Shown in pieces: positions 4,513 through 64,000 of a stretch of 64,000 nt of DNA (positions are counted from its first letter, which is position 1; each line of letters begins with the position of its first letter). This stretch comes from Prevotella melaninogenica (GTDB lineage Bacteria > Bacteroidota > Bacteroidia > Bacteroidales > Bacteroidaceae): positions 496,001-560,000 of the forward strand of contig NZ_CP072350.1 in the NCBI RefSeq assembly GCF_018127965.1, given 5' to 3'. Under the pieces are notes generated by a model. It was not told where the DNA came from. It worked only from the letters and a program-made list of their open reading frames with translations, and did not search any database. The translations under genes were made by a program, and so were the position numbers.

Positions 4513-4692
4513 TTTTCTCCTTGGATATCATTTCTTATTTATGAATCAATAGTAGAAGGAATTACTTTCTCTTGTGTCCAACACTCCCCTCTCTCTCGGA
4601 GAGGGGTTGGGGAGAGGACTTTTTTTCTTCTGTCCTTCTGTCTTGTAAAGATAATTCTAATCTTGAAAATCAAAAAGGCATTAATTACCTTT

Positions 4693-4774
4693 CAATTAAC
4701 GCCCCTTTAGTTTGCAAAAGATGCCCTTTAAGCCCCTTACTAACGCCCTTTTGGAGTCCAATTAAGCACCTTTT
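4693..4774 (-). repeat. Short copy of the AAAAGGTGCTTAATT core repeat
   Basis: On the minus strand it reads AAAAGGTGCTTAATTGGACT, AAAAGGGCGTTAGTAAGG, then AAAGGGCATCTTTTGCAA, the same core as inside the large element. The 5' arm AAAAGGTGC can pair with GCATCTTTT, allowing one G-U pair. The distal arm of the large element is not preserved here. The surrounding 4520-5050 region has no convincing gene. Confidence 0.6.
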
Positions 4775-4998
4775 CTGTATCGCCTTTGTAACTAATTGAA
4801 TCCCTGACTGTTGCAGACTTCTTTCTTACACCTGTTTTCTACCTTTGTTTTAGGAGTTTCCTTTGATTTTATGTAAACATTTTTCACCCAACACTCCGCC
4901 TTTTATAGCTTGCGAATGGATAGCCTTTTTGTATCGTTAGAAGGATAGAAGGAAAGTTTATTGGCTATCTAAGTCATCTGTTTCTCACTATAAAGTAT

Positions 4999-10064: not shown

Positions 10065-10162
10065 AGTTATATTATCTATTCGGTCAGTTAAAAACGAGTA
10101 CAATTTTACGAAATCTTTTTGTAAAAAGCAAGTGAATATCCCTTTAAGTTTAAATTATTTTT

Positions 10163-10750
10163 GGTTCTTCTGCTAAATGTGTGGACGCTTTTCGTATTGC
10201 TTTAGTGAAAGAACCAAAGTTACTCACAAAACAAAAAACATTGCTAAGATTGTCAACTATCTATCTTATTCTCATCCCCTGACATTGAAAACCATTTCTT
10301 TTTATACTTCGAAAATATGCAGACAAGGGTTTGAAAAATTATTACATAAGGTTAAAGAAAACATCTATAACTAACGGTAAAAACATATATATGAAGCAAG
10401 TTTGTAACCAACAGTTAGTCAATTAGTTATAAAGTGGTAAGGTAAGAGATGCTTAATTGGACTTCAAAAGGGCGTTAGTAAGGCTCTTAAAGGGCACCAA
10501 TAGCAAGTTAATTAGGCATCTTTTAGAAGCCTAAAGAGCATGTATTGGGTTTGAAGTGCGCGAAAATAATTTACAGACTTCACATAATAAAGGAATACGT
10601 TGTTTGTTGAAGACAGATAGACGATGTTCCTAATTACATTTATCATGTAGTTTATCCACCTTTGTAAAACCATCTATTTAAGGCTAATCATACCGTGTAT
10701 ACGGATTAATCTTATTCTATTAACCTGTCTACGCATTTAACGGAAGAACC
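10163..10750. repeat. MITE-like non-coding element, full-length copy 1 (588 bp)
   Basis: The ends are 24-bp inverted repeats with four mismatches (GGTTCTTCTGCTAAATGTGT... against GGTTCTTCCGTTAAATGCGT...). Outside them TTATTTTT occurs at 10155-10162 and again at 10751-10758, an apparent 8-bp target duplication, although T-rich. There is no ORF of note. The core at 10444-10524 holds a 16-bp stem (AAGAGATGCTTAATTG with TAATTAGGCATCTTTT, some G-U pairs). A second full-length copy is at 28973-29559 and a truncated one at 21156-21622. Confidence 0.75.
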
Positions 10751-10968
10751 TTATTTTTCTCTGTTAATTAACCTACCTTCTCCTTTCGTCATGTTGAAAG
10801 CATATCTTTATTGGATTTAAGTTATAGCTTCCTTTTATTTTAAAAGTGATAGAATGATGCTTACTTTGTTAAGGTTGGGTATAATAGTAAATCTTAACAA
10901 CATTTGTTAAGAAGTGTTTTTCATATTTAATGAATGGTAAAAACTTACCTTTTGTTGAAGTAAAAAGC

Positions 10969-12009: not shown

Positions 12010-12252
12010 GGTGTTAAGTGTTGGGTGTTGGGTGTTGATGAATTGTTAGGTGATAGGTGATAGGTGTTGGGTGTTGATGAATTGCTTAGAAGTAAATAAT
12101 GATAGCTTCATCACAATTCATCACCACCCACCATCCACCACCTAACACCCATCACCACCCACCATCCACCACCTAACACCCATCACCCATCACCACCTAA
12201 CACCCACTACCTATCACCTACTATTCATCACCACCTATCACCTATCACCCAA
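12010..12252. repeat. GT-rich/AC-rich imperfect palindrome with 31-bp tandem repeat before the GH92 gene
   Basis: A GT-rich arm (repeats of GGTGTTGGGTGTT and GGTGATAGGT) is followed by an AC-rich arm (CACCACCTAACACCCATCAC). GGGTGTTGATGAATTG (12069-12084) pairs with CAATTCATCACCACCC (12114-12129) with one mismatch. Two perfect 31-bp tandem copies occupy 12122-12152 and 12153-12183. The repeat runs right up to 4 bases from the GH92 start codon, so it forms that gene's leader. It is not a CRISPR array, as there are no spacers. Confidence 0.75.
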
Positions 12253-21155: not shown

Positions 21156-21622
21156 GGTGTTTCCGTTAAATGCGTAGATATATTTCGTATAGCTTTAACG
21201 GAAGAAGCGAGGTTACTTATAAAATAAAGACATGACTAAGACGCTCATCTTTCTATTTTATTATTATCTTTCGACACAGAAAACCTTTTTATTTTGATAC
21301 TCCAAAAACCGCAGATAGGGTTCTGAAAAATCATTACATAATTTCAAGTAAACCATCTATAGATAAGGGTGAAATCACGTGTAAAAAGTAAGTTCATAAC
21401 CTACAGGAAATCAATAGGTTATAAAATAGTAAAGTAAAAGGTGCTTAATTGTACTTTAAAAGGGCGTTAGTAAGAGGGTTAAAGGGCACCTTTTGCAAAT
21501 CAATTAAGCGTCTTTTAGAAGCTAAAAGAGCATGTATTGATTTTGAATGACATAAAAAAAGTTTACAAATGCCAGAAATATGGGAATAAAGGATATTGTC
21601 TTTTGAAGATAAATAAATGACG
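21156..21622. repeat. MITE-like element, copy 2, right end missing
   Basis: It starts with GGTGTTTCCGTTAAATGCGT, matching the element ends at 10163 and 28973, and follows the same order of segments. These include the core stem AAAAGGTGCTTAATTG (21436-21451) with CAATTAAGCGTCTTTT (21501-21516). Similarity fades near 21622, so the right inverted end is absent. The inner arm GCACCTTTT (21486-21494) could alternatively pair with AAAAGGTGC. Confidence 0.65.
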
Positions 21623-28972: not shown

Positions 28973-29559
28973 AGCTCTTCCATTAAATGTGTGGACGCTT
29001 TTCGTATTGCTTTAATGTAAGAAACAAAGTAACTCATTAAACAAAAATATGACTGAGACAGTCAACTTTCTGTCCTCTTATCATCCTCTGACATTGAAAA
29101 TCATTTCTTTTTATACTTCAAAAATATGCAGATAATGGTTTGAAAAATCATTACATAATTTCAGATAAGACATCAATAAATAACGGAAAGACTACATAAA
29201 AAAAGCAGGTCTGCAATCAACAGAAAATCAATTAGTTATAAAGTAGCAAAATAAAAGGTGCTTAATTGGATTTCAAAAGGGCGTTAGTAAGGCTCTTAAA
29301 GGGCACCTATTGCAAGGCAATTAGGCGTCTTTTAGAAGCCAAAAGAGCATGTATTAGTTTTGAAGAGCGTGAAAATAATTTACAAACTTTTGTTAATAAG
29401 GGAATACGTTGTTTGTAGAAGGCAGATAGACATCGCACCTAATTACATTTATCATGTAGTTTATCCCCCTTTATAAAACCATCTTATTGGGGGCAATCAT
29501 ACCATGTATGTCGATTAATCTCATTCTATTAACCTGTCTACGCATTTAACGGAAGAACC
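28973..29559. repeat. MITE-like non-coding element, full-length copy 3
   Basis: 587 bp, collinear with the copy at 10163-10750 over its whole length. Left end AGCTCTTCCATTAAATGTGT, right end as reverse complement GGTTCTTCCGTTAAATGCGT. Flanks ACTTTTTG (28965-28972) and ATTTTTTG (29560-29567) differ by one base and may be a target duplication. Core stem: AAAAGGTGCTTAATTG (29253-29268) with CAATTAGGCGTCTTTT (29318-29333), fully paired if G-U is allowed. It separates two lipoprotein genes transcribed in the same direction. Confidence 0.75.
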
Positions 29560-34635: not shown

Positions 34636-36486
34636 TTAGAACAAGTTTACTTTTTCAGAACTTTGGATATTAACTTTCTTTGGAGAAGAAAGGTCGAGGT
34701 CCTCCATCGTACTGTCAATGTTGATTTTCTCTGCTGTTTCCGATATTGTAGATGCCTGAAGATTATGTTCTTCTGTGACCTGTACATTAGCATCATTAGC
34801 AGATAGGACATAACTGTCTGCTGCTATCTCTGTGAGGGATTCACCTGCTTGTATAGACGTACTTTCTCCAGAGACACTGGTAATATCCTGCTCCGCATTC
34901 ATATTGATGGATTCCTCCGCAAGGATGTTGGCATTCTTGCAGTTCACGGTAAAAGTCTCTCCTGCATTGATGGTAATATTTCGCTTTGCATTGATGATGA
35001 TGTCATCTCCTACAGAGTCAATATGGATGGAATTCCCCTTTATGTCTTTGATGGTAATTCCAAGTGACGATAGTGAATCGTTCAACTTTATAGTGTGCCC
35101 ACTACGAGTTGTGAGACTCTTCATGTGATTTCCTTCGAGACCGCCACCACCTGTTGTTCCGTTAAACAGGCTACCCATAACGTATGGTCTTGCAGGGTCA
35201 CCATGACGGAAACCGAGGAGGACCTGGTCGCCTACCTCTGGGATAAACACAAAACCACGGTTGCTCTTTACATCACTACTACTACCGCCATCAGGTGTCA
35301 TCACACGCACCCAGCCTGTCTGCATACCATCTGTTTGCCAGTTCATGCGCACACGCACACGGCCCTTACCCTCTGGGTCAGCATTACTAAGTACCGTTGC
35401 CATCTGCGTTTCAGCTAATGGCATACGCACCTTTGGACTTGGTAATGCTTTTATTGTAGCAGGTATAGCCTTGAAGCGGTTTTTGTAGTAGCTTCCTTGG
35501 CTCACCTCATGGGTTATTTCGGTAATGATGAAGTTACCTAAACTCTCCTTAGATATATTTCCTACACGTTCCAAGAATGAACTGTAGAGACTTATGACAG
35601 AACCTACACGCAGGGTTGGCACCTGACTCTCAGCTGTGATATAATGTGTCTCAGCCGTTTCTGCCGCTTGCTTACGCCCCATGTAGTTAATAAGCTCCGT
35701 CTCATTGCTTATACGTGGCAGTGCATGCTGTCTTGCAGGTTTTGAGAACATACCTAATGATGCACGGAAAGCCTCGCCCGATAGTTTGTCATGACCATAG
35801 GCCAAGTCTGGTGTCATGCGTTGCATCTCACGATCTGCCCCTGAATGATAAGAGAACACCTGTTCTGAACGTGCCAGTGTCTGTAAACCAATGTCAAGTG
35901 AAGACAACGTCGTTCCATATTCCAATATTATAGGGTCAGCCAATTTCCTTGGTTTACCAAAGATGAGTTTTGTTCCATCGAAATACATCCACTCTTGATA
36001 CTGATGTGCAAGACGGCGGATAAAATCGAAGTCAGACTCTTCGTACTGGCAGATAAAGTCTTTGGTTTCCTTGAATGCAGGATTCAACTCTAATTGCACC
36101 TTAGCTTGTTCGCATAGCTTTTTCACTACATCCCCAATGGTTCTATCATTCCATGAGAAACAGCTATGAGCCGTTTCCAGCCTGTAAGTAGCAGAGTCGC
36201 CAGAAACGATGATACATCCAAAGTCACTTCCTTCTCTGTGTAACTGTACATTTGTCACCACGCCCAAGAAGATAGGAGTTCCCACAGCTTTCACCACGAT
36301 GTTTTTACCCAGCCACTCTTTGCTGCTACTGATATTATGTACATATCTATTGCTACCCGTTTCCAATTCGACTGACATTTGGAAACGATGATGTGTACCT
36401 ATGTTTTGTTCAATCTGTAGGGAAATAAATGACGAAAGAGTCTTCTTTCCTATGCTGATAGTGATGGGGTTGAAAGGAATTGACAT
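34636..36486 (-). CDS. vgrG: T6SS spike protein VgrG (TssI), copy 1
   Basis: 616 residues. N-terminal gp27-like part (MSIPFNPITISIGKKTLSSF..., HSCFSWNDRTIGDVVKKLCE, DFIRRLAHQYQEWMYFDGTK), then the gp5 OB fold (GKGRVRVRMNWQTDGMQTGW, VMTPDGGSSSDVKSNRGFVF, PEVGDQVLLGFRHGDPARPY), then a repetitive beta-helix spike (AKRNITINAGETFTVNCKNA, NADEQ-type repeats, SPKKVNIQSSEKVNLF at the end). No C-terminal effector domain, so its cargo is likely the following DUF4280 protein. The first ~450 residues are almost the same as in the copies at 37677 and 40542. Confidence 0.93.
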   Translation of the reverse strand: MSIPFNPITISIGKKTLSSFISLQIEQNIGTHHRFQMSVELETGSNRYVHNISSSKEWLGKNIVVKAVGTPIFLGVVTNVQLHREGSDFGCIIVSGDSATYRLETAHSCFSWNDRTIGDVVKKLCEQAKVQLELNPAFKETKDFICQYEESDFDFIRRLAHQYQEWMYFDGTKLIFGKPRKLADPIILEYGTTLSSLDIGLQTLARSEQVFSYHSGADREMQRMTPDLAYGHDKLSGEAFRASLGMFSKPARQHALPRISNETELINYMGRKQAAETAETHYITAESQVPTLRVGSVISLYSSFLERVGNISKESLGNFIITEITHEVSQGSYYKNRFKAIPATIKALPSPKVRMPLAETQMATVLSNADPEGKGRVRVRMNWQTDGMQTGWVRVMTPDGGSSSDVKSNRGFVFIPEVGDQVLLGFRHGDPARPYVMGSLFNGTTGGGGLEGNHMKSLTTRSGHTIKLNDSLSSLGITIKDIKGNSIHIDSVGDDIIINAKRNITINAGETFTVNCKNANILAEESINMNAEQDITSVSGESTSIQAGESLTEIAADSYVLSANDANVQVTEEHNLQASTISETAEKINIDSTMEDLDLSSPKKVNIQSSEKVNLF

Positions 36487-36589
36487 TGGTTGTTTGTTTT
36501 GAGTTAAATAAGAGATAGGTAGTAAATGATTATTTACTTTTGCGACCCTAACATTTTTGTAGGAACGTTTATAGAAACCTTTACTTGCA

Positions 36590-36637
36590 AAAAGTAAAAA
36601 GGACTATGTCAAGCCGCTAAAGCTCCACATAGTCCTT
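36590..36637 (-). terminator. Terminator between tssD1 and vgrG1
   Basis: On the minus strand AAGGACTATGT pairs with ACATAGTCCTT (arms 36627-36637 and 36599-36609), followed by TTTACTTTTT. The second copy at 43816-43863 keeps the pairing with a compensating base pair change (ATGC/GCAT). It should make most tssD transcripts stop before vgrG. Confidence 0.8.
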
Positions 36638-36650
36638 CTGTGCCTTAAAC

Positions 36651-37049
36651 TTATGTGCGAGGCCAACGGTTGTCAAGCTCAGCATTACCCACGGTGATAT
36701 TCTCAGCAGAGAAAGTCATAGCAATGGTCATAGGAGCCTCGTTGTTAACGTCCAGAGTTTCCTTGTAGTGAACGATGTAAGCATTCTTGAAAGAAATCTC
36801 CTTCATCTTAGCATCCTCTTCGCTCTTCTTGTAAACGATCTTACCCTCAACAGGCTTGAACTGGCTGTTGAGCATAGCCTCGATAGTAGAAGTGTCATCA
36901 GTTGACTCGATAGTTACACTGATACGACCGCCAGAGATGCTTGATGCAGGCTGACCCTTCTTGTCAGTAGTACGGCTGAACTCGTAGTTAGAGTAGAGTA
37001 CGTCATACTCCTTACCACCCAATTCCAAAGTTGCTCTAAATGAACTCAT
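36651..37049 (-). CDS. tssD: T6SS tube protein TssD (Hcp), copy 1
   Basis: 132 residues: MSSFRATLELGGKEYDVLYS, FSRTTDKKGQPASSISGGRI, then FKNAYIVHYKETLDVNNEAP and an MTFSAENITVGNAELDNRW ending. This is the Bacteroidota type of Hcp, a beta-barrel that stacks into the inner tube. It differs from copy 2 at 43877 by a single residue (Asp versus Glu in the ST-D/E-DTST segment). It has its own promoter, a ~180-base leader and a terminator, consistent with high-level separate expression. Confidence 0.93.
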   Translation of the reverse strand: MSSFRATLELGGKEYDVLYSNYEFSRTTDKKGQPASSISGGRISVTIESTDDTSTIEAMLNSQFKPVEGKIVYKKSEEDAKMKEISFKNAYIVHYKETLDVNNEAPMTIAMTFSAENITVGNAELDNRWPRT

Positions 37050-37063
37050 AATTGAAAAGTTTT

Positions 37064-37148
37064 AAGTTGTTAGAAAAAAAATGATAAACGAGGCACCCTT
37101 ATCATCTCCTACTTGTAGGAAAATAAAAAGAGAAAACCTCAACAACTT
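37064..37148 (-). promoter_or_regulatory. tssD1 leader with terminator-like hairpin and alternative pairing
   Basis: On the minus strand ATGATAA...TTATCAT (25-base hairpin at 37081-37105) is followed by eight T, like an intrinsic terminator, before the start codon. AAGTTGTT (37141-37148 as reverse complement) could pair with AACAACTT (37064-37071) around this hairpin, close to the ribosome-binding region. The leader of tssD2 is almost the same (hairpin near 44308-44333). This may be an attenuator; no ligand is suggested. Confidence 0.45.
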
Positions 37149-37231
37149 CTTGAAGTCCCCTCTGTACGGCTGATAAACAGTCTTGCTCTTGAAAAGAAGA
37201 GGAAGATTTGCAATCTGTTGTTTTACAGTGT

Positions 37232-37263
37232 CAAAAGTAAAGATATAATTCTATAAAAACAAA
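37232..37263 (-). promoter_or_regulatory. tssD1 promoter
   Basis: TTTG (37263-37260 on the minus strand), a 20-base spacer and TACTTTTG (37239-37232). The same arrangement precedes tssD2. Confidence 0.7.
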
Positions 37264-37462
37264 TTAAAGATGTAAAATAACATAAGTTTAACATTTGATA
37301 AGCTAAATCCTTATCTTACTTCGAGAGTAGGAGGAACACCTCATCATTATAAGAATAAACTTGTCAACTCATCAGTCTGTCTACTTATCCACTTGTTTAT
37401 CCTCATAGAACTGTAAACAATTTTCCACTTTCTATATTTTCATTTATGCTTAATAGCCTTCG

Positions 37463-37543
37463 AAAAGACGCCCTTTTGGCTTGCTAAAGATGCCCTTTAA
37501 GCCCCTTACTAACGCCCTTTTGACGGCTAATTAAGCACCTTTT
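37463..37543 (-). repeat. Core repeat copy upstream of tssD1
   Basis: On the minus strand AAAAGGTGCTTAATTAG, AAAAGGGCGTTAGTAAGG, AAAGGGCATCTTTAGCAAG and AAAAGGGCGTCTTTT. It holds two 3' arms (GCATCTTTA and GCGTCTTTT) able to pair with AAAAGGTGC. The rest of 37264-37676 shows no gene. Confidence 0.6.
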
Positions 37544-37676
37544 GTATTGTAATTCTGTAATACGCTGATATCGAATGATTTATAAAGGAATGAGATTCAT
37601 AGGTTTTCTTGCTCTTTACCTGACTTTTATTCATCTATGTTGTAATTATATTTCAAGATGGCAGACGGTCAAAGTT

Positions 37677-39160
37677 CTATATGGCTGAGTTTAAGCAAAT
37701 ATGATTGCCAGCAACATCTTTGATAATAATACTCCAATCACCATTTACGTTATCATTGAATGATAGTGTATGCCCACTTCTGGTTATTAGACTTTTCTTG
37801 TGATTATCTTCAAGCCCCCTCACCTGTAACTCCGTTAAACAAGCTACCCATAACGTATGGACGTGCTGGGTCACCATGACGGAAGCCGAGGAGGACTTGG
37901 TCGCCTACCTCTGGGATAAAGACAAAACCACGGTTGCTCTTTACGTCCTTACTGCTACCACCATCTGGTGTCATCACACGCACCCAGCTTGTCTGCATAC
38001 CCTCTGTTTGCCAGTTCATGCGTACACGCACACGGCCCTTACCCTGTGGGATCAGCATTACTAAGCACGGTTGCCATCTGCGTTTCAGCTAATGGCATAC
38101 GCACCTTTGGACTTGGCAGTGCCTTTATCGTTGCAGGTATAGCTTTGAAGCGGTTCTTGTAATAGCTTCCTTGGCTCACCTCATGGGTTATCTCAATGAT
38201 GATAAAGTTACCCAAACTTTCTTTTGATATGTTTCCTACACGTTCCAAGAATGAACTATAGAGACTTACGACAGAACCTACACGCAGGGTTGGCACCTGA
38301 CTCTCAGCCGTGATGTAATGTGTCTCAGCAGTCTCTGCCGCCTGCTTACGCCCCATGTAATTAATAAGTTCCGTCTCATTGCTTATACGTGGCAGTGCAT
38401 GCTGTCGTGCGGGTTTTGAGAACATACCGAGTGATGCACGAAAAGCCTCGCCCGAAAGTTTGTCATGACCATAAGCCAAGTCGGGTGTCATACGCTGCAT
38501 CTCACGGTCAGCACCAGAGTGATAAGAGAACACCTGCTCTGAGCGCGCGAGGGTCTGTAACCCAATGTCAAGTGAAGACAGTGTTGTTCCATATTCTAAT
38601 CTTATAGGGTCAGCCAATTTCCTTGGTTTACCAAAGATGAGTTTAGTTCCATCGAAATACATCCACTCTTGATACTGATGAGCAAGACGACGGATAAAGT
38701 CGAAGTCTGACTCTTCATACTGGCAGATAAAGTCTTTGGTTTCCTTGAATGCAGGATTCAACTCTAATTGCACCTTAGCTTGTTCGCACAGCTTTTTCAC
38801 TACATCCCCAATGGTTCTATCATTCCATGAGAAGCAGCTGTGTGCCGTTTCCATTCTGTAAGTAGCAGAGTAGCCAGAAACGATGATACATCCAAAGTCA
38901 CTTCCTTCTCGGTGTAGCTGTACATTTGTCACCACACCAACGAAGATAGGAGTATTTGCAGCCTTCACAACGATGCTTTCTCCGAGCCATTTCTTGCTGC
39001 TATTGATATTATGTACATATCTATTACCACCCGTTTCCAATTCAACAGACATTTGGAATCGGTGGTGTTTACCTATGTTTTGTTCGATTTGTAGAGAAAT
39101 AAAAGAAGAAAGAGACTTCTTTCCTACGCTGATAGTGATGGGGTTGAAAGGAATTGACAT
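37677..39160 (-). pseudogene. Truncated, frameshifted VgrG copy 2
   Basis: From the ATG at 39160 the sequence matches the other VgrG proteins for ~370 residues. One extra A at about 38050 (GGGATCAGC versus GGGTCAGC in the intact copies) then shifts the frame within the linker NADP-GKGRV. The OB-fold region continues in the next frame (to about 37810). A further shift near 37820 leads into SGHTLSFNDNVNGDWSIIIK and an early stop at 37677, so the beta-helix is lost. It cannot make a functional spike, but it can serve as a donor for recombination with the two intact copies. Confidence 0.88.
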
Positions 39161-39189
39161 TGGTTGTTTGTTTTGAGATAAATTAAGCC

Positions 39190-39368
39190 GAATCGGTTAT
39201 TAGAGCCTAAACATATTTTGTTTTATTATCGAACAGATTGTTTGACTTTAGGGCGCAGGCGTAGCGGGTTACGTCAAGTCACAAGGACAAGCAAGATGCT
39301 CGATAATAAAATATGTTAGGAAACAATAGCATATAAGAGTTATACATATTGTTGTTTAATGACCGATT
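39190..39368. repeat. AATCGGT-TATTAG palindrome with an internal inverted stretch
   Basis: AATCGGTTATTAGAGCC near 39191 and TAATGACCGATT near 39357 are inverted copies of the palindrome seen intact at 27490. Inside, AACATATTTT..TATTATCGA and TCGATAATAAAATATGTT are also inverted, enclosing ~60 bases (GGGCGCAGGCGTAGCGGG...). No gene. Confidence 0.5.
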
Positions 39369-39373
39369 GAGTT

Positions 39374-39718
39374 TTATTCACTTTCAACAAAAGAATTACT
39401 TCCTGTATCAACGAATGATATTCTTCCTCCTTTAGCACACATACAGAATGACTGCTCCGTCAGCTTCTTCATCCCATTGATACTGTCTTTCTGTGTTGTT
39501 TGCTGCCAGCCTTGTGGCTGTGGAATACAAGGAGGATTCGGAGAACTACATTTGCAAACTCCAAAACTTGGGATATTATTTAAACCAATTTTATCCTCCT
39601 CTGTCGCTACCAATGCTCCCGAAATACTTCGGAAACTTTGACTAAGAACCGTCAACTTAGCTTGCCAAGTTCCTAAAGTGCAACACATAATAGCTCCATC
39701 AGTTACAATTTTTACCAT
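39374..39718 (-). CDS. Stand-alone DUF4280 PAAR-like protein
   Basis: 114 residues: MVKIVTDGAIMCCTLGTWQA, then PSFGVCKCSSPNPPCIPQPQ, then FCMCAKGGRISFVDTGSNSF. The paired cysteines and the CxxGG end agree with DUF4280, the PAAR-like cap of VgrG in Bacteroidota T6SS. It lies 1 base after the lipoprotein at 39720 in the direction of transcription, behind the VgrG-metzincin gene. It has no effector extension, so it may just sharpen the spike. Confidence 0.82.
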   Translation of the reverse strand: MVKIVTDGAIMCCTLGTWQAKLTVLSQSFRSISGALVATEEDKIGLNNIPSFGVCKCSSPNPPCIPQPQGWQQTTQKDSINGMKKLTEQSFCMCAKGGRISFVDTGSNSFVESE

Positions 39719-39719
39719 T

Positions 39720-40343
39720 CTACTTTATTATAGGATTTGTACCTTTCTTTATAATTTCTCCTGTATTGGCATTTATTTTAATAGAAACTATATTTGATCC
39801 TACCTTGTAATGAATAATCCATACTGGTATATTGGTTTTATCACTTACATATCGCCTTATAGAAACATTCTTATCGAATAAATCCAGCTTTAACTCTTCC
39901 TTTACAAACTTCTCTACTTTTTCCCATGGATAGTTCTTATAAGGGGCATCTTGGTCGTATTCAGCTATTAAATAACCATTCTCGTCATACTCTTTCCATA
40001 TACCACTTTCAAAATCGTTATAATAGTACTTCCCTATCAGCTTAAGGGTCTTACTTTTATTGTAATACTCTCTATATGTACCGAATAACTCCTTATCTTT
40101 CTTGGCGTATTCAAAATAATTAGAACCATTCTCTCCTCCGAACTGACGTACCTTGCCTTTTAAATAACTTTTAAACTCATAGTCGTCATTTTCTCTATGT
40201 GTGTAATATTTCCATGAATCAAATTTCTCAGTTGTCCTTTCCATATTCTTGTTTTTTTTGATGTTATTACTACTATTGTCTTGTGCCTTACAACTACCTA
40301 TTACAACGAGTAATGTAAGTAAAATAATTATTTGTCTTACCAT
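39720..40343 (-). CDS. Lipoprotein, candidate immunity for the VgrG-metzincin
   Basis: 207 residues with a lipoprotein signal (MVRQIIILLTLLVVIGSCKA; Cys at 18). The middle has MORN-like turns (GTYREYYNKSKTLKLIGKYY, YNDFESGIWKEYDENGYLIA), and the C-terminus looks like a small alpha/beta domain (YKVGSNIVSIKINANTGEII). It is the first gene after the VgrG with a C-terminal protease-like domain, the typical place for an immunity gene. That role is inferred; no inhibitor family was recognised. Confidence 0.65.
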   Translation of the reverse strand: MVRQIIILLTLLVVIGSCKAQDNSSNNIKKNKNMERTTEKFDSWKYYTHRENDDYEFKSYLKGKVRQFGGENGSNYFEYAKKDKELFGTYREYYNKSKTLKLIGKYYYNDFESGIWKEYDENGYLIAEYDQDAPYKNYPWEKVEKFVKEELKLDLFDKNVSIRRYVSDKTNIPVWIIHYKVGSNIVSIKINANTGEIIKKGTNPIIK

Positions 40344-40541
40344 TCCTTTATTTTTATTTACAGTAATTATTCAGCGATAATGAACGTTGAATATTAAGAA
40401 CTTATAAACGTTATATTGTGGGAAAAAGGCTCGAAATGACATTCTTCATCAAAATCCGTATGTGCCTGTTTATGTAACTTATTGATAATCAATAATAGTT
40501 TATCGCCTTATCGTTGAATAGTTACTATTTACATTTGAATC

Positions 40542-43500
40542 TTATTTATTGTTTGCCATACTATCCTTCCCTTGCACTACGGTCATCAAATCTTTATGGA
40601 GAATGTCCCATTGGAATTGCCATGTAGCTACTACAGGTATTGGCTTGTCAGATACATCTGAATAATCCATAATATTATCCGTTTTATTCATCTCAAAAGT
40701 ATGTAAGTTTAAACTACTAAATGAATGGTATAATCCCAATGCATGATACAACTCATGTACGCAAGTTGTATCATGCAGCCCTGGTGCTAATACAACAACT
40801 TCCTTAGAGCAAATTTTTCTGGCTTGTCCATATAAGTTCTCATCTTCATTCTTTTCGTTAAGAAAAAATATTTTGTGATACTCCTTATATTTTGATGTTA
40901 TGTTGTCTTCATTAAATGTCTCCGTGAGGTATTCAAATACCTCAGCGGGCAACTCCTTCCCCTTCAGATAGCCTCCTTCTGTATAGGCAAGAAAGGCTTC
41001 TTTTCGTTCTTGTATTGTTAAATCAAGCTTACATTCGACAATATTAGTATCGATATATGCCTGAGCAAGATATTTCTCTAATATTCTTCTACGGAAAGAA
41101 TTTTCAGGTGGTTCTACTCCTTTACTGTTACCATTCCTTTTAAGATTTGTTCTCACCCTCACCATCGCTATGTTCAGTGCATATCGATGGTGCTCATCAT
41201 TAGCTTTTACAATTAACTTTCCTGCCAGTGATTTATTATCTTTCTCGTCATAGGCATAAAGACATATTTCCTTATCTTCCGAGAACTCTTGTTTGCATGT
41301 TATTTTCAATTTATCACCTTTTTTATGGAAACCCTTGTTATGAGTTTTAGCTGTGCTCTTACTCAAAGAAAACAGTTCCTCATCATACTCGTATTTAAGT
41401 GCTACAGCCTTTTCATGAATATCTATATTTAATTCTAAGGCTGCAGAGTTTCCTTTCTTCAAGGTCATCACAGGTACTACATAGAGATAGTCTGTTGATT
41501 TTTTACCGTCATTAGTCCCTGTATTAAGAGTAGCAGCTTTAGCGGCTTCTGCTTCTTTCTTCTTCCAAGGTATGATATACTGTTGCTTGTATTCGGACAG
41601 GAATTGATTATATTTGTTTGTTTCCTGTTTGAAATTATCCCCTTCTCCCTCGCAAGAACCGATTATTTTGTCATAACGATTATCTTCTATATCCCCAGCT
41701 CTGTCGGAATCCGCAAAACGTACCCAGTCAAAGCCATAATCACCTTTATATTTCTTAGGAGTTCTAAACTGTACACATACCTTTGTTCCTATTTCCTCTT
41801 TTACTGTTTCATATTCTTTAGCTGTATTCAGTTCGTGCATGCCTTGTTCTCCACGCATCTCCATCGTGCCTTGCGAATTCACCACCGTTTTGTTTGCAGA
41901 ATGTATAAAAAGTTCCTGCTCACCAACAACATTCGTCTCTGGAGCCTCAATCTTTATTTGCTTCTGAGAGTTGAGCAATGCCTTTCCTGCCTGTGTGTGG
42001 AAGAAGTCTGCAACAATCTGCTGCATGAAAGGTGTGTTTACCAATATCTTCTGCATTACATTGGTCAGCAACATATTACCAATGTTCGTTGTTTGTGAGT
42101 TTCCAACATTAACTTGTAGGTCGTGACCTACCATTAAGGACATATCATTACCAGCATGGAGCTGTATGTTCTTAGGGGCATTAATCAAGATGTTTCCATT
42201 TCCATCCAAATGAATGGAACTACCGCCCGCATCTTTTATTGCAAGTGACTTATTATCATCATTCAGGATAACAGAAATACCACTACGCGTCTTAAGACTT
42301 TTAATACTATTATTTGAACCGCCACCGTTACCAGTAGTTCCGTTAAAGAGACTACCCAAAACGTATGGTCTTGCAGGGTCACCATGACGGAAGCCGAGGA
42401 GGACTTGGTCGCCTACCTCTGGGATAAATACAAAACCACGGTTACTCTTTACGTCACTACTACTACCGCCATCTGGGGTCATCACACGCACCCAACCTGT
42501 CTGCATACCATCTGTCTGCCAGTTCATACGTACACGCACACGGCCCTTGCCCTGTGGGTCAGCATTGCTAAGCACAGTTGCCATCTGTGTCTCAGCCAAT
42601 GGCATACGCACCTTTGGACTTGGCATTGCCTTTATTGTTGCAGGGATAGCCTTGAAGCGGTTTTTGTAGTAGCTTCCTTGACTCACCTCGTGGGTTATCT
42701 CGATAATGATAAAGTTACCCAAGCTCTCTTCTGATAGGTTCCCTACACGTTCCAAGAATGAACTGTAGAGACTTATAACGGAACCTACACGCAGGGTTGG
42801 CACCTGACTCTCAGCTGTGATATAATGTGTCTCAGCCGTCTCAGCCGCCTGCTTACGCCCCATGTAGTTAACGAGCTCTGTCTCATTGCTGATACGTGGC
42901 AGCGCATGCTGTCTTGCTGGTTTTGAGAACATACCTAATGATGCACGGAAAGCCTCACCCGCAAGTTTGTCATGACCATATGCCAAGTTTGGCGTCATAC
43001 GTTGCATCTCGCGGTCAGCACCAGAGTGATAAGAGAACACCTGCTCAGAGCGTGCGAGGGTCTGTAAACCAATGTCAAGTGAAGACAGTGTTGTTCCATA
43101 TTCTAATCTTATAGGGTCAGCCAATTTCCTTGGTTTACCAAAGATGAGTTTAGTTCCATCGAAATACATCCACTCTTGATACTGATGAGCAAGACGACGG
43201 ATAAAGTCGAAGTCCGACTCTTCGTATTGGCAGATATAGTCTTTGTTTTCCTTGAATGCAGGGTTTAACTCTAATTGCACTTTGGCTTGTTCGCACAACT
43301 TCTTAACCACATCCCCAATGGTTGTGTCATTCCATGAGAAACAGCTGTGAGCCGTTTCCATTCTGTATGTTGCAGAATAACCTGAAACGATGATACATCC
43401 AAAGTCACTTCCTTCTCTGTGTAACTGTACATTTGTCACCACACCCAAGAAGATAGGAGTACTTGCAGACTTTACGACGATGTTTTTTCCGAGCCACTCT

Positions 43501-43667
43501 TTGCTACTACTGATATTATGTACATATCTATTGCTACCCGTTTCCAATTCAACCGACATTTGGAAACGATGATGTGTACCTATGTTTTGATCAATTTGTA
43601 AAGAAATAAAAGACGAAAGAGTCTTCTTTCCTATGCTGATAGTGATTGGGTTGAACGGAATTGACAT
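40542..43667 (-). CDS. vgrG: Evolved VgrG with C-terminal metzincin-like metalloprotease domain
   Basis: 1041 residues. Residues 1-~450 match the other VgrGs (gp27-like part and OB fold, GKGRVRVRMNWQTDGMQTGW), followed by a shorter beta-helix (HAGNDMSLMVGHDLQVNVGN, EIEAPETNVVGEQELF-like repeats) to about 600. The extension ends in a zinc-binding motif, HELYHALGLYH at about 971-981, matching HExxHxxGxxH, with a Met-turn candidate NIMDYS 27 residues later. Both are hallmarks of metzincin proteases. The stretch 620-950 is lysine- and glutamate-rich with no recognised fold. A toxin fused to the spike would be delivered into target cells; a proteolytic effect on the target is inferred. Confidence 0.88.
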   Translation of the reverse strand: MSIPFNPITISIGKKTLSSFISLQIDQNIGTHHRFQMSVELETGSNRYVHNISSSKEWLGKNIVVKSASTPIFLGVVTNVQLHREGSDFGCIIVSGYSATYRMETAHSCFSWNDTTIGDVVKKLCEQAKVQLELNPAFKENKDYICQYEESDFDFIRRLAHQYQEWMYFDGTKLIFGKPRKLADPIRLEYGTTLSSLDIGLQTLARSEQVFSYHSGADREMQRMTPNLAYGHDKLAGEAFRASLGMFSKPARQHALPRISNETELVNYMGRKQAAETAETHYITAESQVPTLRVGSVISLYSSFLERVGNLSEESLGNFIIIEITHEVSQGSYYKNRFKAIPATIKAMPSPKVRMPLAETQMATVLSNADPQGKGRVRVRMNWQTDGMQTGWVRVMTPDGGSSSDVKSNRGFVFIPEVGDQVLLGFRHGDPARPYVLGSLFNGTTGNGGGSNNSIKSLKTRSGISVILNDDNKSLAIKDAGGSSIHLDGNGNILINAPKNIQLHAGNDMSLMVGHDLQVNVGNSQTTNIGNMLLTNVMQKILVNTPFMQQIVADFFHTQAGKALLNSQKQIKIEAPETNVVGEQELFIHSANKTVVNSQGTMEMRGEQGMHELNTAKEYETVKEEIGTKVCVQFRTPKKYKGDYGFDWVRFADSDRAGDIEDNRYDKIIGSCEGEGDNFKQETNKYNQFLSEYKQQYIIPWKKKEAEAAKAATLNTGTNDGKKSTDYLYVVPVMTLKKGNSAALELNIDIHEKAVALKYEYDEELFSLSKSTAKTHNKGFHKKGDKLKITCKQEFSEDKEICLYAYDEKDNKSLAGKLIVKANDEHHRYALNIAMVRVRTNLKRNGNSKGVEPPENSFRRRILEKYLAQAYIDTNIVECKLDLTIQERKEAFLAYTEGGYLKGKELPAEVFEYLTETFNEDNITSKYKEYHKIFFLNEKNEDENLYGQARKICSKEVVVLAPGLHDTTCVHELYHALGLYHSFSSLNLHTFEMNKTDNIMDYSDVSDKPIPVVATWQFQWDILHKDLMTVVQGKDSMANNK

Positions 43668-43815
43668 TGGTTGTATGTTTTGAAATAAATAAAATCTAAT
43701 AATCGTATTAGAATGATATATCCTTTTTATAGATTTATAGATAGGTAGTAAATGATTATTTACTTTTGCGATCCTAATATTTTAATAGGATTGTTTATAG
43801 AAACCTTTACTTGCA

Positions 43816-43863
43816 AAAAGCAAAAAGGACTATGCCGAGCATAGCCTGCCCTGCATAGTCCTT
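43816..43863 (-). terminator. Terminator between tssD2 and vgrG3
   Basis: On the minus strand AAGGACTATGC pairs with GCATAGTCCTT (arms 43853-43863 and 43825-43835), followed by TTTTTGCTTTTT. Same position relative to tssD as the copy at 36590. Confidence 0.8.
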
Positions 43864-43876
43864 CTGCTCTTTAAGC

Positions 43877-44275
43877 TTATGTGCGAGGCCAACGGTTGTC
43901 AAGCTCTGCATTACCCACGGTGATATTCTCAGCAGAGAAAGTCATAGCGATGGTCATAGGAGCCTCGTTGTTAACGTCGAGTGTCTCCTTGTAGTGAACG
44001 ATGTAAGCATTCTTGAAAGAAATCTCCTTCATCTTAGCATCCTCTTCGCTCTTCTTGTAAACGATCTTACCCTCAACAGGCTTGAACTGGCTGTTGAGCA
44101 TAGCCTCGATAGTAGAAGTGTCCTCAGTTGACTCGATGGTCACGCTGATACGACCGCCAGAGATGCTTGATGCTGGCTGACCCTTCTTGTCAGTTGTGCG
44201 GCTGAACTCGTAGTTAGAGTAGAGTACGTCATACTCCTTACCACCCAATTCCAAAGTTGCTCTAAATGAACTCAT
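43877..44275 (-). CDS. tssD: T6SS tube protein TssD (Hcp), copy 2
   Basis: 132 residues, one residue different from copy 1 (Glu instead of Asp in the STxDTST segment). The surrounding promoter, leader hairpin and terminator are also duplicated, so a block of about 650 bp was copied together. It precedes the VgrG-metzincin gene. Two near-identical tssD genes ahead of two different VgrG units suggest that each payload unit carries its own tube gene, or that gene conversion keeps them alike. Confidence 0.93.
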   Translation of the reverse strand: MSSFRATLELGGKEYDVLYSNYEFSRTTDKKGQPASSISGGRISVTIESTEDTSTIEAMLNSQFKPVEGKIVYKKSEEDAKMKEISFKNAYIVHYKETLDVNNEAPMTIAMTFSAENITVGNAELDNRWPRT

Positions 44276-44456
44276 AATTGAAAAGTTTTAAGTTGTTAGA
44301 AAAAAATGATAAACGAGGCACCCTTATCATCTCCTTTACAAGAAAACAAAAAAGAGAAAACCTCAACAACTTCTTGAAGTCCCCTCTGTACGGCTGATAA
44401 ACAGTCTTGCTCTTGGAAAGAAGAGGATGATTCACAATCTGTTGTTTTTATAGTTT

Positions 44457-44488
44457 CAAAAGTAAAAATATAATTCTATAAAAGCAAA
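44457..44488 (-). promoter_or_regulatory. tssD2 promoter
   Basis: TTTG (44488-44485), a 20-base spacer and TACTTTTG (44464-44457) on the minus strand, identical in layout to the tssD1 promoter. The ~180-base leader to the ATG carries the ATGATAA/TTATCAT hairpin with a T-run. Confidence 0.7.
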
Positions 44489-44897
44489 TTAAAGACGTAA
44501 AATAACATAAGTTTAACATTAAAAAACTAAATGCTTACTTATTATCTTTGCATTTTCTGCAAAGTGCATTGTTAAGTCTTCATTTTCGAGTAGCGGTAAA
44601 TTAGCCTCTGTCTGTAGCTTAAAGACACAATTCCCCCAATAATCAATCGGTTACAGCCATTGATAGTTTTTCCCATATGACTTAAATTACTTTGAATATG
44701 AGCTTACAAGTTTTCTTTAAATTATATCATATCTAATATAAAAATATGATTTATTTGTGTTTTTATATGCGTTCGAATATAAAATGGGGTGTAAAACATA
44801 GGGAATACAGACTCAGTAAACAGCTATTCAGACGATGAGGAGGGGATAATGGATGGTGTCGTCTTGCTTGGTAATGTTTGGGGATATAATCTGTTTT

Positions 44898-45130
44898 GTC
44901 CGATTTTTTCACATGGTGATTTTATAAAGACCTCCAAACGGCTTGCAAAAGACGCCCTTTTGGCTTGCAAAAGGTGCCCTTTTGAGGTCTTGTTAACGCC
45001 CTTTTGAAGTCTAATTAAGCACCTTTTAAAATCTCTCTTTGCAACTATCTGATTACAAATAACTTACATAGATGCTAAAGCGATGCGCTTTTAAGCCTTT
45101 TCCTTGCCTTTCCTTCGAACGTTTTGTCAA
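44898..45130. repeat. Second type of dispersed element carrying the core repeat (copy 1)
   Basis: From TTGTCCGATTTTTTCACA to TTTTGTCAATATATTTC it is homologous to 63751-64000. On the minus strand the core reads AAAAGGTGCTTAATTAGACT, AAAAGGGCGTT, AAAGGGCACCTTTTGCAAG, AAAGGGCGTCTTTTGCAAG. Flanks differ from those of the 588-bp element, so the same core sits in two contexts. The rest of 44489-45309 has no convincing gene; a CACAGAGACACGGAG fragment lies near 45165. Confidence 0.6.
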
Positions 45131-45357: not shown

Positions 45358-46959
45358 ATGATGATGAAGAAGTTATTTTCAACCTTGGTTGTCCTTTTGA
45401 TGACATCGACGATGCAGGCTCAGTATCAAGAACCGGTGCGACGTGACACGTCAAAGTTGCAGCCATTAAAAGGCTTAGAATATAAGGTGGAGATGCAGGG
45501 GAGCCTTTCAAAGGGTAAGACCCCACTCTGGCTCAATGCCAATAAGTATGGACTCAGTTCGCTGGAGACAGCGAACGGCTATCTGCGAGGGGGCATAGAA
45601 CGTCCAATCCAGACGGATGAAGGGCAGAAGTTTGGCTTAGGCTATGGGTTAGACGTTGCTTTACCTATCAACTATACTAATAAGGCGGTCATTCAGCAGG
45701 CATACGTGGAAGGACGATGGTGGCACGGAACGCTGACCATTGGAGCCAAGGAACAGCCGATGGAACTGAAGAACAATGAGCTCAGTTCGGGTTCGCAGAC
45801 ATTGGGCATCAATGCTCGTCCTATTCCGCAGGTGCGTTTGGCATTGTCAGACTATTGGACACTACCCTTTGCGAATGGCTGGTTGCACCTCAAAGGACAC
45901 GTTGCTTACGGAATGATGACCGACCAAAATTGGCAACATGATTTCACGGCTAAGCAATCGAAATATACCGACCGTGCGCTCTTCCACTCTAAGGCAGGCT
46001 ATCTGAAGGTGGGGAATGATGAGGTGTTCTGTCCATGGTCGTTAGAGATGGGGTTAGAGATGGTTAGTATCTTTGGCGGTACCTCTTATCTTCCTGATGG
46101 TCATGGCGCAATGAAGACCATAGAGAATGGGAAAGGGCTGCACGCTTATTGGAACGCTTTTCTCCCCGGTGGTGCCGACAATGGTGAGACAACTTATCAG
46201 AATGTACAGGGCGACCAGTTGGGCAGTTGGGTGATGCGTTTCAACTATGATGGCGACTGGCACGGCTTTTCACTCTATGCTGATAAGTTCTTTGAGGACC
46301 ATTCCGCCATGCTCCAGCTTGACTATGACGGTTATGGTGAGGGCAGCGAGTGGCAAGAGAAGAAGCAACGTCGCTACTTGATTTATGATTTCAAGGACTG
46401 GCTCTTAGGTTTTGAATATCGTTATAAGCCTGATAATTGGTTGAACACTTTTGTCGTTGAATATCTTTATTCAAAGTATCAGAGTGGTCCGATTTACCAT
46501 GATCATACCATCACGGTAGCCGACCATATTGGAGGCAAGGACAACTTCTATAACCATTATATCCTCCCCGGTTTCCAACATTGGGGACAAGGCATTGGTA
46601 ATCCGCTCTATCGTTCACCGATTTACAATGAAGATGGGACTATCTACTTTAAGGACAACCGTTTCGTGGGTTTCCATGTAGGTCTGGGTGGTCATCCTTC
46701 AGAGTATTTCAAGTGGCGCTTCCTCGGCACATGGCAGGAGGGATTGGGAACCTACGAACAGCCTTATACGAAGAGACGACACAACGTGAGTCTGATGGGA
46801 GAGGCAACTTATACGCTGCAAGGACAGAAACTTCCGATGTGGATGAGAGGTGTTGATGTCCGAATGGGCATCGGTGCCGACTTCGGTTCAGTACTCGGTG
46901 GCAACAACTATGGTATGCAGTTGACCATTACGAAGCGTGGTTTGTTAGGAAAGAAATAG
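45358..46959 (+). CDS. Wzi-like capsule assembly outer-membrane protein
   Basis: 533 residues. Signal peptide (MMMKKLFSTLVVLLMTSTMQ), then a beta-barrel with many aromatic residues. The N-terminal pattern SLSKGKTPLWLNANKYGLSS and ANGYLRGGIERPI is typical for the Wzi/capsule assembly family of Bacteroidota, as are YVEGRWWHGTLTIGAKEQPM and SDYWTLPFANGWLHLKGHVA. Wzi binds exported polysaccharide at the cell surface. Here it starts the region with Wzx, Wzy, Wzz and Wza genes and is followed after 33 bases by a small lipoprotein. Several ATG codons in a row make the exact start uncertain by two residues. Confidence 0.82.
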   Translation: MMMKKLFSTLVVLLMTSTMQAQYQEPVRRDTSKLQPLKGLEYKVEMQGSLSKGKTPLWLNANKYGLSSLETANGYLRGGIERPIQTDEGQKFGLGYGLDVALPINYTNKAVIQQAYVEGRWWHGTLTIGAKEQPMELKNNELSSGSQTLGINARPIPQVRLALSDYWTLPFANGWLHLKGHVAYGMMTDQNWQHDFTAKQSKYTDRALFHSKAGYLKVGNDEVFCPWSLEMGLEMVSIFGGTSYLPDGHGAMKTIENGKGLHAYWNAFLPGGADNGETTYQNVQGDQLGSWVMRFNYDGDWHGFSLYADKFFEDHSAMLQLDYDGYGEGSEWQEKKQRRYLIYDFKDWLLGFEYRYKPDNWLNTFVVEYLYSKYQSGPIYHDHTITVADHIGGKDNFYNHYILPGFQHWGQGIGNPLYRSPIYNEDGTIYFKDNRFVGFHVGLGGHPSEYFKWRFLGTWQEGLGTYEQPYTKRRHNVSLMGEATYTLQGQKLPMWMRGVDVRMGIGADFGSVLGGNNYGMQLTITKRGLLGKK

Positions 46960-47660: not shown

Positions 47661-47998
47661 GATGCTTTTAGTTCTTCCGAGATATAGAATGATAAGCTAA
47701 AACCCTTACATGATAAGGCATACAGAGTCACGGAGTGGACGGAGAATATCGCTATGTCAGGGAGGTGCCGATAGCACAGAGAGCGATAGAGATATAGCGT
47801 ATAGTTCTTTGATAACTAAGGAGATAAACGCTTTGTTCATTAATCTCTAATAAAACTCGCAAACAACCTCCTTTGCTCCATGCACCAACGGTGCCTCCGT
47901 GAATACCATTGCTTTGTTTTTATAATCCTCCATTCACTCCGTGACTCTGTGTGATATTTCTTCAAAATCCTAAACTTAGGAGGACGCTTATCATTCTA
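47661..47998. repeat. Palindromic CACAGAG/CTCCGTG element, second copy
   Basis: It starts GTTCTTCCGAGATATAGAAT and GATAAGC and ends near GCTTATCATTCTAAAT, inverted. Inner arms are ACAGAGTCACGGAGTGGACG and CATTCACTCCGTGACTCTGT, nearly perfect complements. The middle (GAGGTGCCGATAGCACAGAG... AATAAAACTCGCAAA) matches the reverse complement of the element at 2851-3234. No gene. Confidence 0.65.
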
Positions 47999-48038
47999 AA
48001 TTACTGATGTCACAGTTTTTTACCTTTTTTCTTCCTCT

Positions 48039-63335: not shown

Positions 63336-63595
63336 CCCTATTCTCTCACTGCGAGAATGCCATATGAAGTAAAATTGAAGGAGTGGAGTTTATTTAAGTC
63401 AAACTGCTTAGTAGACTATAATAAGCATTATTGCCACTATGTGCGGTATGGTCTCCCAACTTCTTTTATCTCCTTGTCGGCATCTTATATAGCTTTTTAG
63501 CTTGATGTAGTCTGCTACATCTTTGTTATTGAGATAAATAACGTTCCTCCGAGAGATGGAGTGATAAGCTAAAGCTATCATATAATACGGTACAC

Positions 63596-63645
63596 AGAGC
63601 AATTCTAAGTTTGCAGTTAGAAACTTAGAGTTGCTCTTTTTTTTA
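63596..63645 (+). terminator. Intrinsic terminator downstream of pyk
   Basis: AGAGCAATTCTAAGTTT (63596-63612) pairs with AAACTTAGAGTTGCTCT (63621-63637) with one mismatch, followed by TTTTTTTT. It lies 260 bases after pyk. Between them is a fragment of the GTTCCTCCGAG / GATAAGC element (63543-63569) but no gene. Confidence 0.85.
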
Positions 63646-63750
63646 TCTCTTAAATCCAAATCGGTCTATTGTGGACTAATGAACGATTGGGGTTAAAGTG
63701 CTAAACGTAAAGACAAACGCTATTGATTCAAACTGCGGATGAATCTCCTT

Positions 63751-64000
63751 TTGTCCGAATTTTTCACATTCTGATTTTTAAAAGAGCACCAAATGGCTCG
63801 CAAATAACGCCCTTTTGGCTTGTAATAGGTGCCCTTTTGAGGTCTTACTAACGCTCTTTTAGAGTCCAATTAAGCACCTTTTGAAACCTTACTTTGCAAC
63901 TGCTTGATAACAAAAGAGTTACAGAGGCGTTAAAAGAAGCCGCTTTTAAGCTATTTCCTCACCTTTTCTTTAAAGATTTTGTCAATATATTTCCATACTG
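63751..64000. repeat. Second type of dispersed element carrying the core repeat (copy 2, cut by window end)
   Basis: It starts TTGTCCGAATTTTTCACA and follows 44898-45130 base by base with changes, including AACGCCCTTTTGGCTTG, AGGTGCCCTTTTGAGGTC, CCAATTAAGCACCTTTTGAA and TTTTGTCAATATATTTCC at the window edge. An AATCGGTC palindrome fragment (63659-63688) precedes it. Confidence 0.6.

What the first reader, a model, noticed from the sequence alone, without database searches (positions are those of the whole stretch)
10444..10524. Covarying 16-bp stem and competing arm inside the repeat core
In all three large copies a 16-base 5' arm pairs completely, allowing G-U, with a 3' arm about 50-65 bases on (21436-21451 with 21501-21516; 29253-29268 with 29318-29333; 10444-10459 with 10509-10524). 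Bases differ at several paired positions (GGTGC/GCGTC versus GATGC/GCATC; AAGC versus AGGC), yet none breaks pairing. The 5' half AAAAGGTGC can also pair with an inner GCACCTTTT, so two exclusive folds exist. This points to a functional RNA or a hairpin recognised as DNA.
Basis: partly seen in the sequence, partly recalled or inferred. Interest (0 to 1): 0.7.

Follow-up and report, generated by a model that had tools for sequence, protein, structure and literature searches.

The report
Phased DNA-box arrays dispersed in Prevotella
The supposed RNA stem is a by-product of a repeated 22-base DNA pattern, estimated at about 220 copies in this genome and lying beside a likely DNA-bending site; two of its boxes are kept by selection while the letters between them drift.

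Summary
The 16-pair stem is in all three copies, but the differences are one-sided wobble changes. Over 72 distinct copies it pairs no better than shuffled partners (84.2% against 84.2%), and between sister species 33 changed pairs are paired in one species only, 22 in both. The covarying stem is rejected.

The core is an array of 22-nt units: a 15-nt A/T-bounded box plus a 7-nt spacer; about 223 copies are estimated. The format, with other letters, occurs in other Prevotellaceae, usually beside a match to the IHF consensus. In 23 orthologous pairs boxes 2+3 differ at 2.3% of sites, their spacers at 12.7%; boxes 1 and 4 are not so kept.

20 of 55 sampled copies lie in a ~590-bp MITE with 8-bp target duplications.

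Best reading (inferred): a BIME/RIB-like architectural DNA element bound by an unknown box-binding protein and IHF/HU. Rivals: curvature alone, terminator, selfish repeat, RNA. Closest known: PINSR, BrickBuilt, BIME. Seven paper searches listed no report of the class.

The parts
10155..10162 (.). left copy of the 8-bp target duplication TTATTTTT
10163..10750 (+). MITE copy (588 bp) that holds the core of the finding; ends match GGTTCTTCCGTTAAATG (2 and 0 mismatches)
   Evidence: homology to P. melaninogenica stops at 10162
10751..10758 (.). right copy of the target duplication TTATTTTT
21156..21570 (+). MITE copy; left end found, right end not found; present at the orthologous place in P. melaninogenica
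   Evidence: the end 21570 is where similarity to another copy stops
28973..29559 (+). MITE copy (587 bp), flanking 8-mers agree at 7 of 8
10444..10545 (+). core: array of 22-nt units (site of the finding)
21436..21537 (+). core array
29253..29354 (+). core array
4673..4774 (-). core array outside the MITE group
   Evidence: present in P. melaninogenica
37442..37543 (-). core array outside the MITE group
44926..45027 (-). core array outside the MITE group
   Evidence: present in P. melaninogenica
63781..63882 (-). core array outside the MITE group
   Evidence: its P. melaninogenica counterpart is in the sequence printed
10417..10429 (+). match to the IHF consensus WATCAANNNNTTR, one mismatch
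   Evidence: read at the offset found
21409..21421 (+). IHF consensus match, exact
   Evidence: read at the offset found
29226..29238 (+). IHF consensus match, exact
   Evidence: read at the offset found
4789..4801 (-). IHF consensus match, one mismatch
   Evidence: flank printed
37558..37570 (-). IHF consensus match, one mismatch
   Evidence: flank printed
45042..45054 (-). IHF consensus match, one mismatch
   Evidence: flank printed
63897..63909 (-). IHF consensus match, exact
   Evidence: flank printed

Best explanation
The finding lies in a dispersed, non-coding element whose core is an array of about five 22-bp units, each a 15-bp box bounded by A/T tracts plus a 7-bp spacer, beside an IHF-type site. 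SHOWN: copy number, fixed 22-bp period (about two helical turns), 11-bp phasing of A/T tracts, IHF-consensus match at a fixed offset, conservation of boxes 2 and 3 over their spacers at fixed orthologous loci, and a MITE form with target duplications that carries the core. INFERRED: boxes 2 and 3 (above all their AAAGGGC, 22 bp apart on one face of the helix) are bound by an unknown sequence-specific protein, IHF/HU bends the neighbouring DNA, and together they form an architectural or insulating complex between genes, as BIME/RIB elements are thought to do. Long-range stems arise because near-palindromic boxes are repeated in tandem; they are not the selected feature. The MITE has helped to spread the module in the melaninogenica group.
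For: Boxes 2+3 differ at 16 of 689 sites, spacers 2+3 at 41 of 322, p=3e-10; columns 24-34 and 46-52 unchanged in 23 orthologous pairs. Gene conversion would not spare 15-nt boxes and miss 7-nt spacers. Spacer of 7 at every listed place but two, where 3-12 were allowed. IHF consensus: exact in 14 of 35 and within one mismatch in 27 of 35 copies outside the MITE group, 0.2% and 5% in shuffles; beside arrays of other species 13 of 40, 15 of 43, 5 of 7 exact against 0 of 38, 0 of 41, 0 of 7 at 340-400 nt; its fixed positions changed in 11 of 207 sites between orthologues, its free bases in 16 of 92. W4 tracts phased at 11.0 bp. Seven HU/IHF-family matches in this genome.
Against: No protein or binding was shown. 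Boxes 1 and 4 are not protected (8.4% and 9.0%; spacers 1 and 4 11.2% and 6.8%), and the core as a whole (6.9%) is no better kept than gene-side flanks (6.8-7.4%), only better than the repeat body (8.7-13.7%). One local hairpin covaries, and adjacent boxes are inverted partners more often than chance in two other species, which speaks for hairpins. 3 arrays of G102 have no IHF match. Two more distant relatives show phased tracts near the shuffled level. Several orthologous pairs are MITE copies, and most copies are related, so they are not independent.
Confidence: 0.5

Rival explanations
1. Curvature alone: the array is intrinsically bent DNA, A/T tracts one helical turn apart, and no sequence-specific protein is needed.
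For: W4 tracts have an 11.0-bp phase (vector 0.83); AATT replaces TTTT/AAAA in many copies; species differ in the letters between the tracts.
Against: GGGC and GTTA inside box 2 and GGGC in box 3 did not change in 23 orthologous pairs, more than curvature asks for.
Confidence: 0.13
2. Terminator: the units are arms of intrinsic, often bidirectional, transcription terminators.
For: 9 of 35 copies outside the MITE group have a hairpin with T-run against 10% of shuffles. Adjacent boxes are exact inverted complements in 15 of 50 listed P. bivia pairs (4.1 expected) and 5 of 22 in G102 (1.2 expected). Units 4/5 covary. Copies tend to follow genes on the same strand (19 of 27, p=0.05) and to avoid divergent regions (2 of 27 against 37 of 161, p=0.07; P. 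histicola 5 of 38 against 33 of 100).
Against: 26 of 35 such copies and 19 of 20 MITE copies lack a good terminator; no orientation bias for MITE copies nor avoidance of divergent regions in the remaining species (11 of 39 against 25 of 81); a terminator does not need a 22-bp period.
Confidence: 0.15
3. Functional RNA with two exclusive folds.
For: Low folding energies in most of eight cores; local hairpin covariation.
Against: No covariation in the named stem or the inner arm, weak in the long hairpin (63-65 of 500), pairing lost between orthologues, no Rfam match, consensus fold trivial.
Confidence: 0.08
4. A purely selfish repeat without host function: boxes are kept because its own copying needs them.
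For: MITE anatomy and target duplications; amplification in one group (at least 150 in G169 against 5 and 11 in two relatives).
Against: Boxes 2 and 3 stay conserved in copies fixed at orthologous places while the repeat body diverges 9-14%; selection for copying would not act on immobile copies.
Confidence: 0.1

Closest known systems
PINSR, 188-bp repeat of Prevotella intermedia/nigrescens (PMC4755523; abstract, passages and section 3.4 read)
   Same: Intergenic, non-coding, 177-184 copies, two-chromosome Prevotella; no terminal inverted repeats, as the copies outside the MITE group here.
   Different: Its letters are in a figure that is not held, so homology could not be tested; the paper reports it only from P. 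intermedia, nigrescens, falsenii and disiens. No 22-bp array or IHF site is described in the parts seen.
BrickBuilt MITE of Porphyromonas gingivalis (PMC4596501; passages)
   Same: Intergenic MITE with an internal short tandem repeat between a leader and a tail.
   Different: 23-nt repeats, 19 elements, other ends (GAGACCTTTGCA); expansion of the repeat number; no IHF site in the passages seen.
BIME / REP / RIB elements of enterobacteria (abstracts; RIB-IHF reference title; further details recalled)
   Same: Over 100 copies, intergenic, regularly spaced palindromic units, IHF-binding members.
   Different: No Y1 transposase in this genome or G169; GTAG/CTAC within 20 nt on both sides in 0 of 55; unit letters differ between species.

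Membership tests
MITE (the ~590-bp form) | terminal inverted repeats | tested here: met
   74 end-like sites with up to 3 mismatches in this genome
MITE (the ~590-bp form) | target-site duplication | tested here: met
   20 end pairs from 19 copies (17 here, 2 in G169), 8-mers agree at 5.4 of 8 against 3.3 shuffled; 7 pairs at 7 or 8 of 8
MITE (the ~590-bp form) | empty site in a relative | tested here: inconclusive
   left flank matches up to the first base and one TTATTTTT follows, but the right flank agrees for only 7 more bases before the genomes diverge
MITE (the ~590-bp form) | parent IS with the same ends | tested here: not met
   only the IS1595 family was searched; its one hit is a nested IS with other ends
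REP/BIME with RAYT | Y1 transposase in the genome | tested here: not met
   none in G000, G169, G003, G026, G102; found in G010, G077, G089
REP/BIME with RAYT | GTAG foot | tested here: not met
   within 20 nt upstream 8, downstream 4, both 0 of 55; control 4
RIB-like IHF element | IHF consensus beside palindromes | tested here: met
RIB-like IHF element | IHF binding | not testable with these tools
   HU/IHF-family genes exist
PINSR | 188-bp consensus | not testable with these tools
   consensus only in a figure
BrickBuilt | 23-nt repeat and ends GAGACCTTTGCA | tested here: not met
   22-nt period and ends GGTTCTTCCG here; BrickBuilt data
Structured RNA | covarying conserved stem | tested here: not met
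   named stem and inner arm; the local units 4/5 hairpin does covary
Known RNA family | Rfam match | tested here: not met
   no match in the window at gathering score
Intrinsic terminator | hairpin with T-run in most copies | tested here: not met
   9 of 35 and 1 of 20

The most novel reading that the evidence does not exclude
Prevotellaceae carry a hitherto undescribed class of chromosome-organising element: an IHF-type bend beside a helically phased array of boxes whose letters differ from species to species while the format stays fixed, as if each species' boxes track a fast-evolving DNA-binding protein; in the melaninogenica group a MITE has taken up the module and scattered it between genes as ready-made binding sites.
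Probability: 0.35. Interest if true: 0.8.

Novelty: new variant of a known kind. Interest (0 to 1): 0.6.

Why it matters
To my knowledge Bacteroidales have few described counterparts of the BIME/RIB elements of enterobacteria (recalled). An element with fixed geometry, changing letters and measurable selection on two of its boxes gives a direct handle on an unknown DNA-binding protein and on how repeats organise two-chromosome oral Prevotella genomes. It also warns that tandem near-palindromes look like conserved RNA stems.

Tried and rejected
Covarying 16-pair stem and inner switch: rejected. Consensus folding of 73 copies gave 7 pairs, none with a change on both sides. All-pairs covariation on 52 copies was dominated by pairs that are not base-paired, as family relatedness gives. 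G-U against A-C counts in the stem (243 against 30) were not used: they reflect fixed wobble positions of the consensus, not independent changes. An IS1595 transposase between two MITE ends looked like the parent, but reading it showed a nested IS with its own inverted repeats. Terminator as the general function: rejected for most copies. Gene-context bias: weak. REP/RAYT membership: not met. A simple scan for phased tracts gave 16 in the window against 3.5 in shuffles and 21 in P. melaninogenica against 4.7, but only 6 against 4.8 and 6 against 4.0 in two more distant relatives.

Rows dropped and limits. 3 partial copies of 55 were left out of A2 and. Two relative loci (L069, L074) were not printed, and one printed there (L076) is an 11-bp repeat, not the 22-nt format. 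Of 21 own copies with both flanks matched in G169, one had no called core and was dropped. Copy 63781 was not paired; copies 29253 and 37442 have no determined counterpart. One pair with a gap was skipped in the stem count. G169 stretches were chosen around known cores, so shared occupancy there is not an unbiased rate. In one search all 50 listed G010 pairs of 57 were used and 22 of 25 listed G102 pairs of 73 (3 identical duplicates left out; G010 keeps a few duplicated arrays). The split into 20 MITE copies and 35 others rests on right-flank similarity, so some of the 35 are probably MITE copies cut at the right end (for example L045:14315). Some of the 20 genomes have a single match and may be chance (G148 has as many in the reversed control).

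Full report
What was checked. The three arm pairs named in the finding are in the sequence and pair 16 of 16 with G-U allowed. The differences between the three copies are one-sided wobble changes at separate pairs, so they are not compensatory. The window has no Rfam match at gathering score.

Collecting copies. A 461-base query gave 40 scored matches among 224 candidates in the genome of the window, which has two contigs of 1.863 and 1.355 Mb. I took 35 stretches of 20 kb which, with the window, make a 764-kb sample. A profile of the core gave 58 hits, 55 copies after removing overlaps: 20 per 400 kb on the larger and 35 per 364 kb on the smaller replicon (p=0.02), about 223 genome-wide by extrapolation.

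The core is a tandem array. In register it is a string of 22-nt units: AAAAGGTGCTTAATTGGACTTC, AAAAGGGCGTTAGTAAG plus a variable end, AAAGGGCRYCTTTTGCAAGYC, then AAAAGGGCGTCTTTT or AATTAGGCGTCTTTT plus a 7-nt spacer, then a fifth. Each unit is a 15-nt box, often near-palindromic and bounded by A/T tracts, plus a spacer of 7.

Covariation. The inner arm shows none. The long hairpin of the RNA folds is marginal (63 and 65 of 500); units 3/4 are not significant (71-89 of 500). Only the local hairpin of units 4/5 exceeds all 500 shuffles in pairing and covariation score, mainly because TTTT/AAAA and AATT/AATT arms are exchanged together.

Architecture around the core. 32 of the 35 sampled copies outside the MITE group were aligned. 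They share a layout with little letter identity: a direct repeat of the type TGAAAWWTNNTTACA, about 60 nt, TTTGTAAC-n-WATCAANNNNTTR-n-AAA, the array, and in most a similar direct repeat in the same orientation. The inner motif matches the E. coli IHF consensus (recalled): exact in 14 of 35 and within one mismatch in 27 of 35, 23 of these 27 nt before the core, against 0.2% and 5% in shuffles; 11 of 20 MITE copies are exact. The role of the flanking direct repeats is unexplained.

The MITE form. 20 of 55 copies share the right flank of a ~590-bp element with terminal inverted repeats. Twenty end pairs from 19 copies have flanking 8-mers that agree at 5.4 of 8 positions on average against 3.3 in shuffles, seven of them at 7 or 8. 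The window copy 10163-10750 is flanked by TTATTTTT on both sides. In the sister species the left flank matches up to the first base of the element and one TTATTTTT follows, but the right flank agrees for only seven more bases (CTCTGTT) before the two genomes diverge; homology resumes 6.4 kb on. This is consistent with an empty site, not a full proof of one. The transposase source was not found; only the IS1595 family was searched, and its one match is a nested IS.

Selection. The sister genome G169 is 93-96% identical over window genes; its chromosome lengths, 1,796,408 and 1,371,874, are those I recall for P. melaninogenica ATCC 25845. It has at least 150 core matches (the number scored is capped), two more distant relatives 5 and 11. 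In 23 orthologous pairs (20 by flank matching plus 3 window copies) gene-side flanks differ by 6.8-7.4%, the repeat body by 8.7-13.7%, the core by 6.9%. Within the core, boxes 2+3 differ at 16 of 689 sites and their spacers at 41 of 322 (p=3e-10); columns 24-34 and 46-52 have no change. Against a uniform reading, box 1 differs by 8.4% (spacer 11.2%) and box 4 by 9.0% (spacer 6.8%). The fixed positions of the IHF-type site changed in 11 of 207, its free bases in 16 of 92, bases beside it in 24 of 184 and 47 of 320. In the long hairpin fold box 2 pairs with box 4, and box 4 varies while box 2 does not, so the constraint on box 2 is on its letters rather than on pairing.

Other species. A covariance model of the core found matches in 11 of 35 other genomes of the genus and in 0 of 24 genomes of other families. 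Most of the weaker loci that I could read are arrays of the same 22-nt format with other letters, for example AAAAGGGCTGCTTTT, AAAAGGTCATCTTTT and AAAAGATAATGTTTT; one is an 11-bp repeat. A two-box pattern with 3 to 12 spacer bases allowed was present in 20 of 150 genomes of the genus, some with a single, possibly chance, match; every listed place has a spacer of 7 except two in one genome with 8 (capped list). In P. bivia adjacent boxes are exact inverted complements in 15 of 50 listed pairs against 4.1 expected, direct copies in 4 against 4.8; in G102 5 of 22 against 1.2. The IHF consensus stands beside arrays in P. histicola (13 of 40 exact, 33 of 40 within one mismatch; shuffled 1.3% and 20%), in a mixed set of other species (15 and 28 of 43; 0.5% and 13%) and in P. 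bivia (5 of 7), against 0 of 38, 0 of 41 and 0 of 7 exact 340-400 nt away; 3 arrays of G102 had none.

Function. A terminator role fits 9 of 35 copies outside the MITE group and 1 of 20 MITE copies. Copies outside the MITE group tend to follow genes on the same strand (19 of 27, p=0.05) and to avoid divergent regions (2 of 27 against 37 of 161, p=0.07); in P. histicola 5 of 38 arrays lie between divergent genes against 33 of 100 background regions; in the remaining species there is no bias (11 of 39 against 25 of 81); MITE copies show none (simple ORF calling). A/T tracts recur with an 11.0-bp phase, so bending is plausible. The genome has seven HU/IHF-family matches. I therefore favour an architectural protein-DNA element and rank terminator, curvature alone, a purely selfish repeat and RNA below it. 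No binding, transcription or phenotype was shown.

Known relatives. PINSR of P. intermedia (abstract, passages and section 3.4 of PMC4755523) is nearest in kind, but its letters are in a figure that is not held. BrickBuilt (passages of PMC4596501) is a MITE with a 23-nt repeat and other ends. REP/BIME elements share palindromic units and copy number (abstracts), but no Y1 transposase is in this genome or in G169 and there is no GTAG foot. Seven paper searches listed no report of this phased array class; passages of PMC12306157 and PMC8040213 do not describe it. The library holds open-licence papers only, so a report elsewhere is possible.

Noticed in passing
47671-48013: A second dispersed repeat (about 340 bp, starts GTTCTTCCG) with many relatives in P. 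melaninogenica but absent at the orthologous place there, where 80 other bases stand.
   Followed up: partly
12010-12239: CACC-rich short tandem repeats; the stretch matches dozens of places of P. melaninogenica on both strands, another dispersed family.
   Followed up: no
35149-44520: Long direct repeats of 75-96% identity, some in three copies, which look like duplicated genes or gene segments.
   Followed up: no
L292:440-2300: An IS1595-family transposase gene (351 aa) with its own inverted repeats, nested inside a MITE copy.
   Followed up: yes
whole genome (sample L031-L065 and window): Core copies are about twice as dense on the smaller replicon (35 per 364 kb against 20 per 400 kb, p=0.02).
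   Followed up: partly
63307-64000 and its counterparts in L282-L288: Where this genome and P. melaninogenica carry an array, two more distant relatives show a simple hairpin with T-run instead (read by eye).
   Followed up: partly
flanks of the cores outside the MITE group, e.g. 63749-63993: Direct repeats of the type TGAAAWWTNNTTACA on both sides of the element, same orientation, role unknown.
   Followed up: partly
G010:C2:42744-43100 and 46554-46910 (L333, L336): Two Y1 transposase matches with equal scores about 4 kb apart in P. bivia.
   Followed up: no
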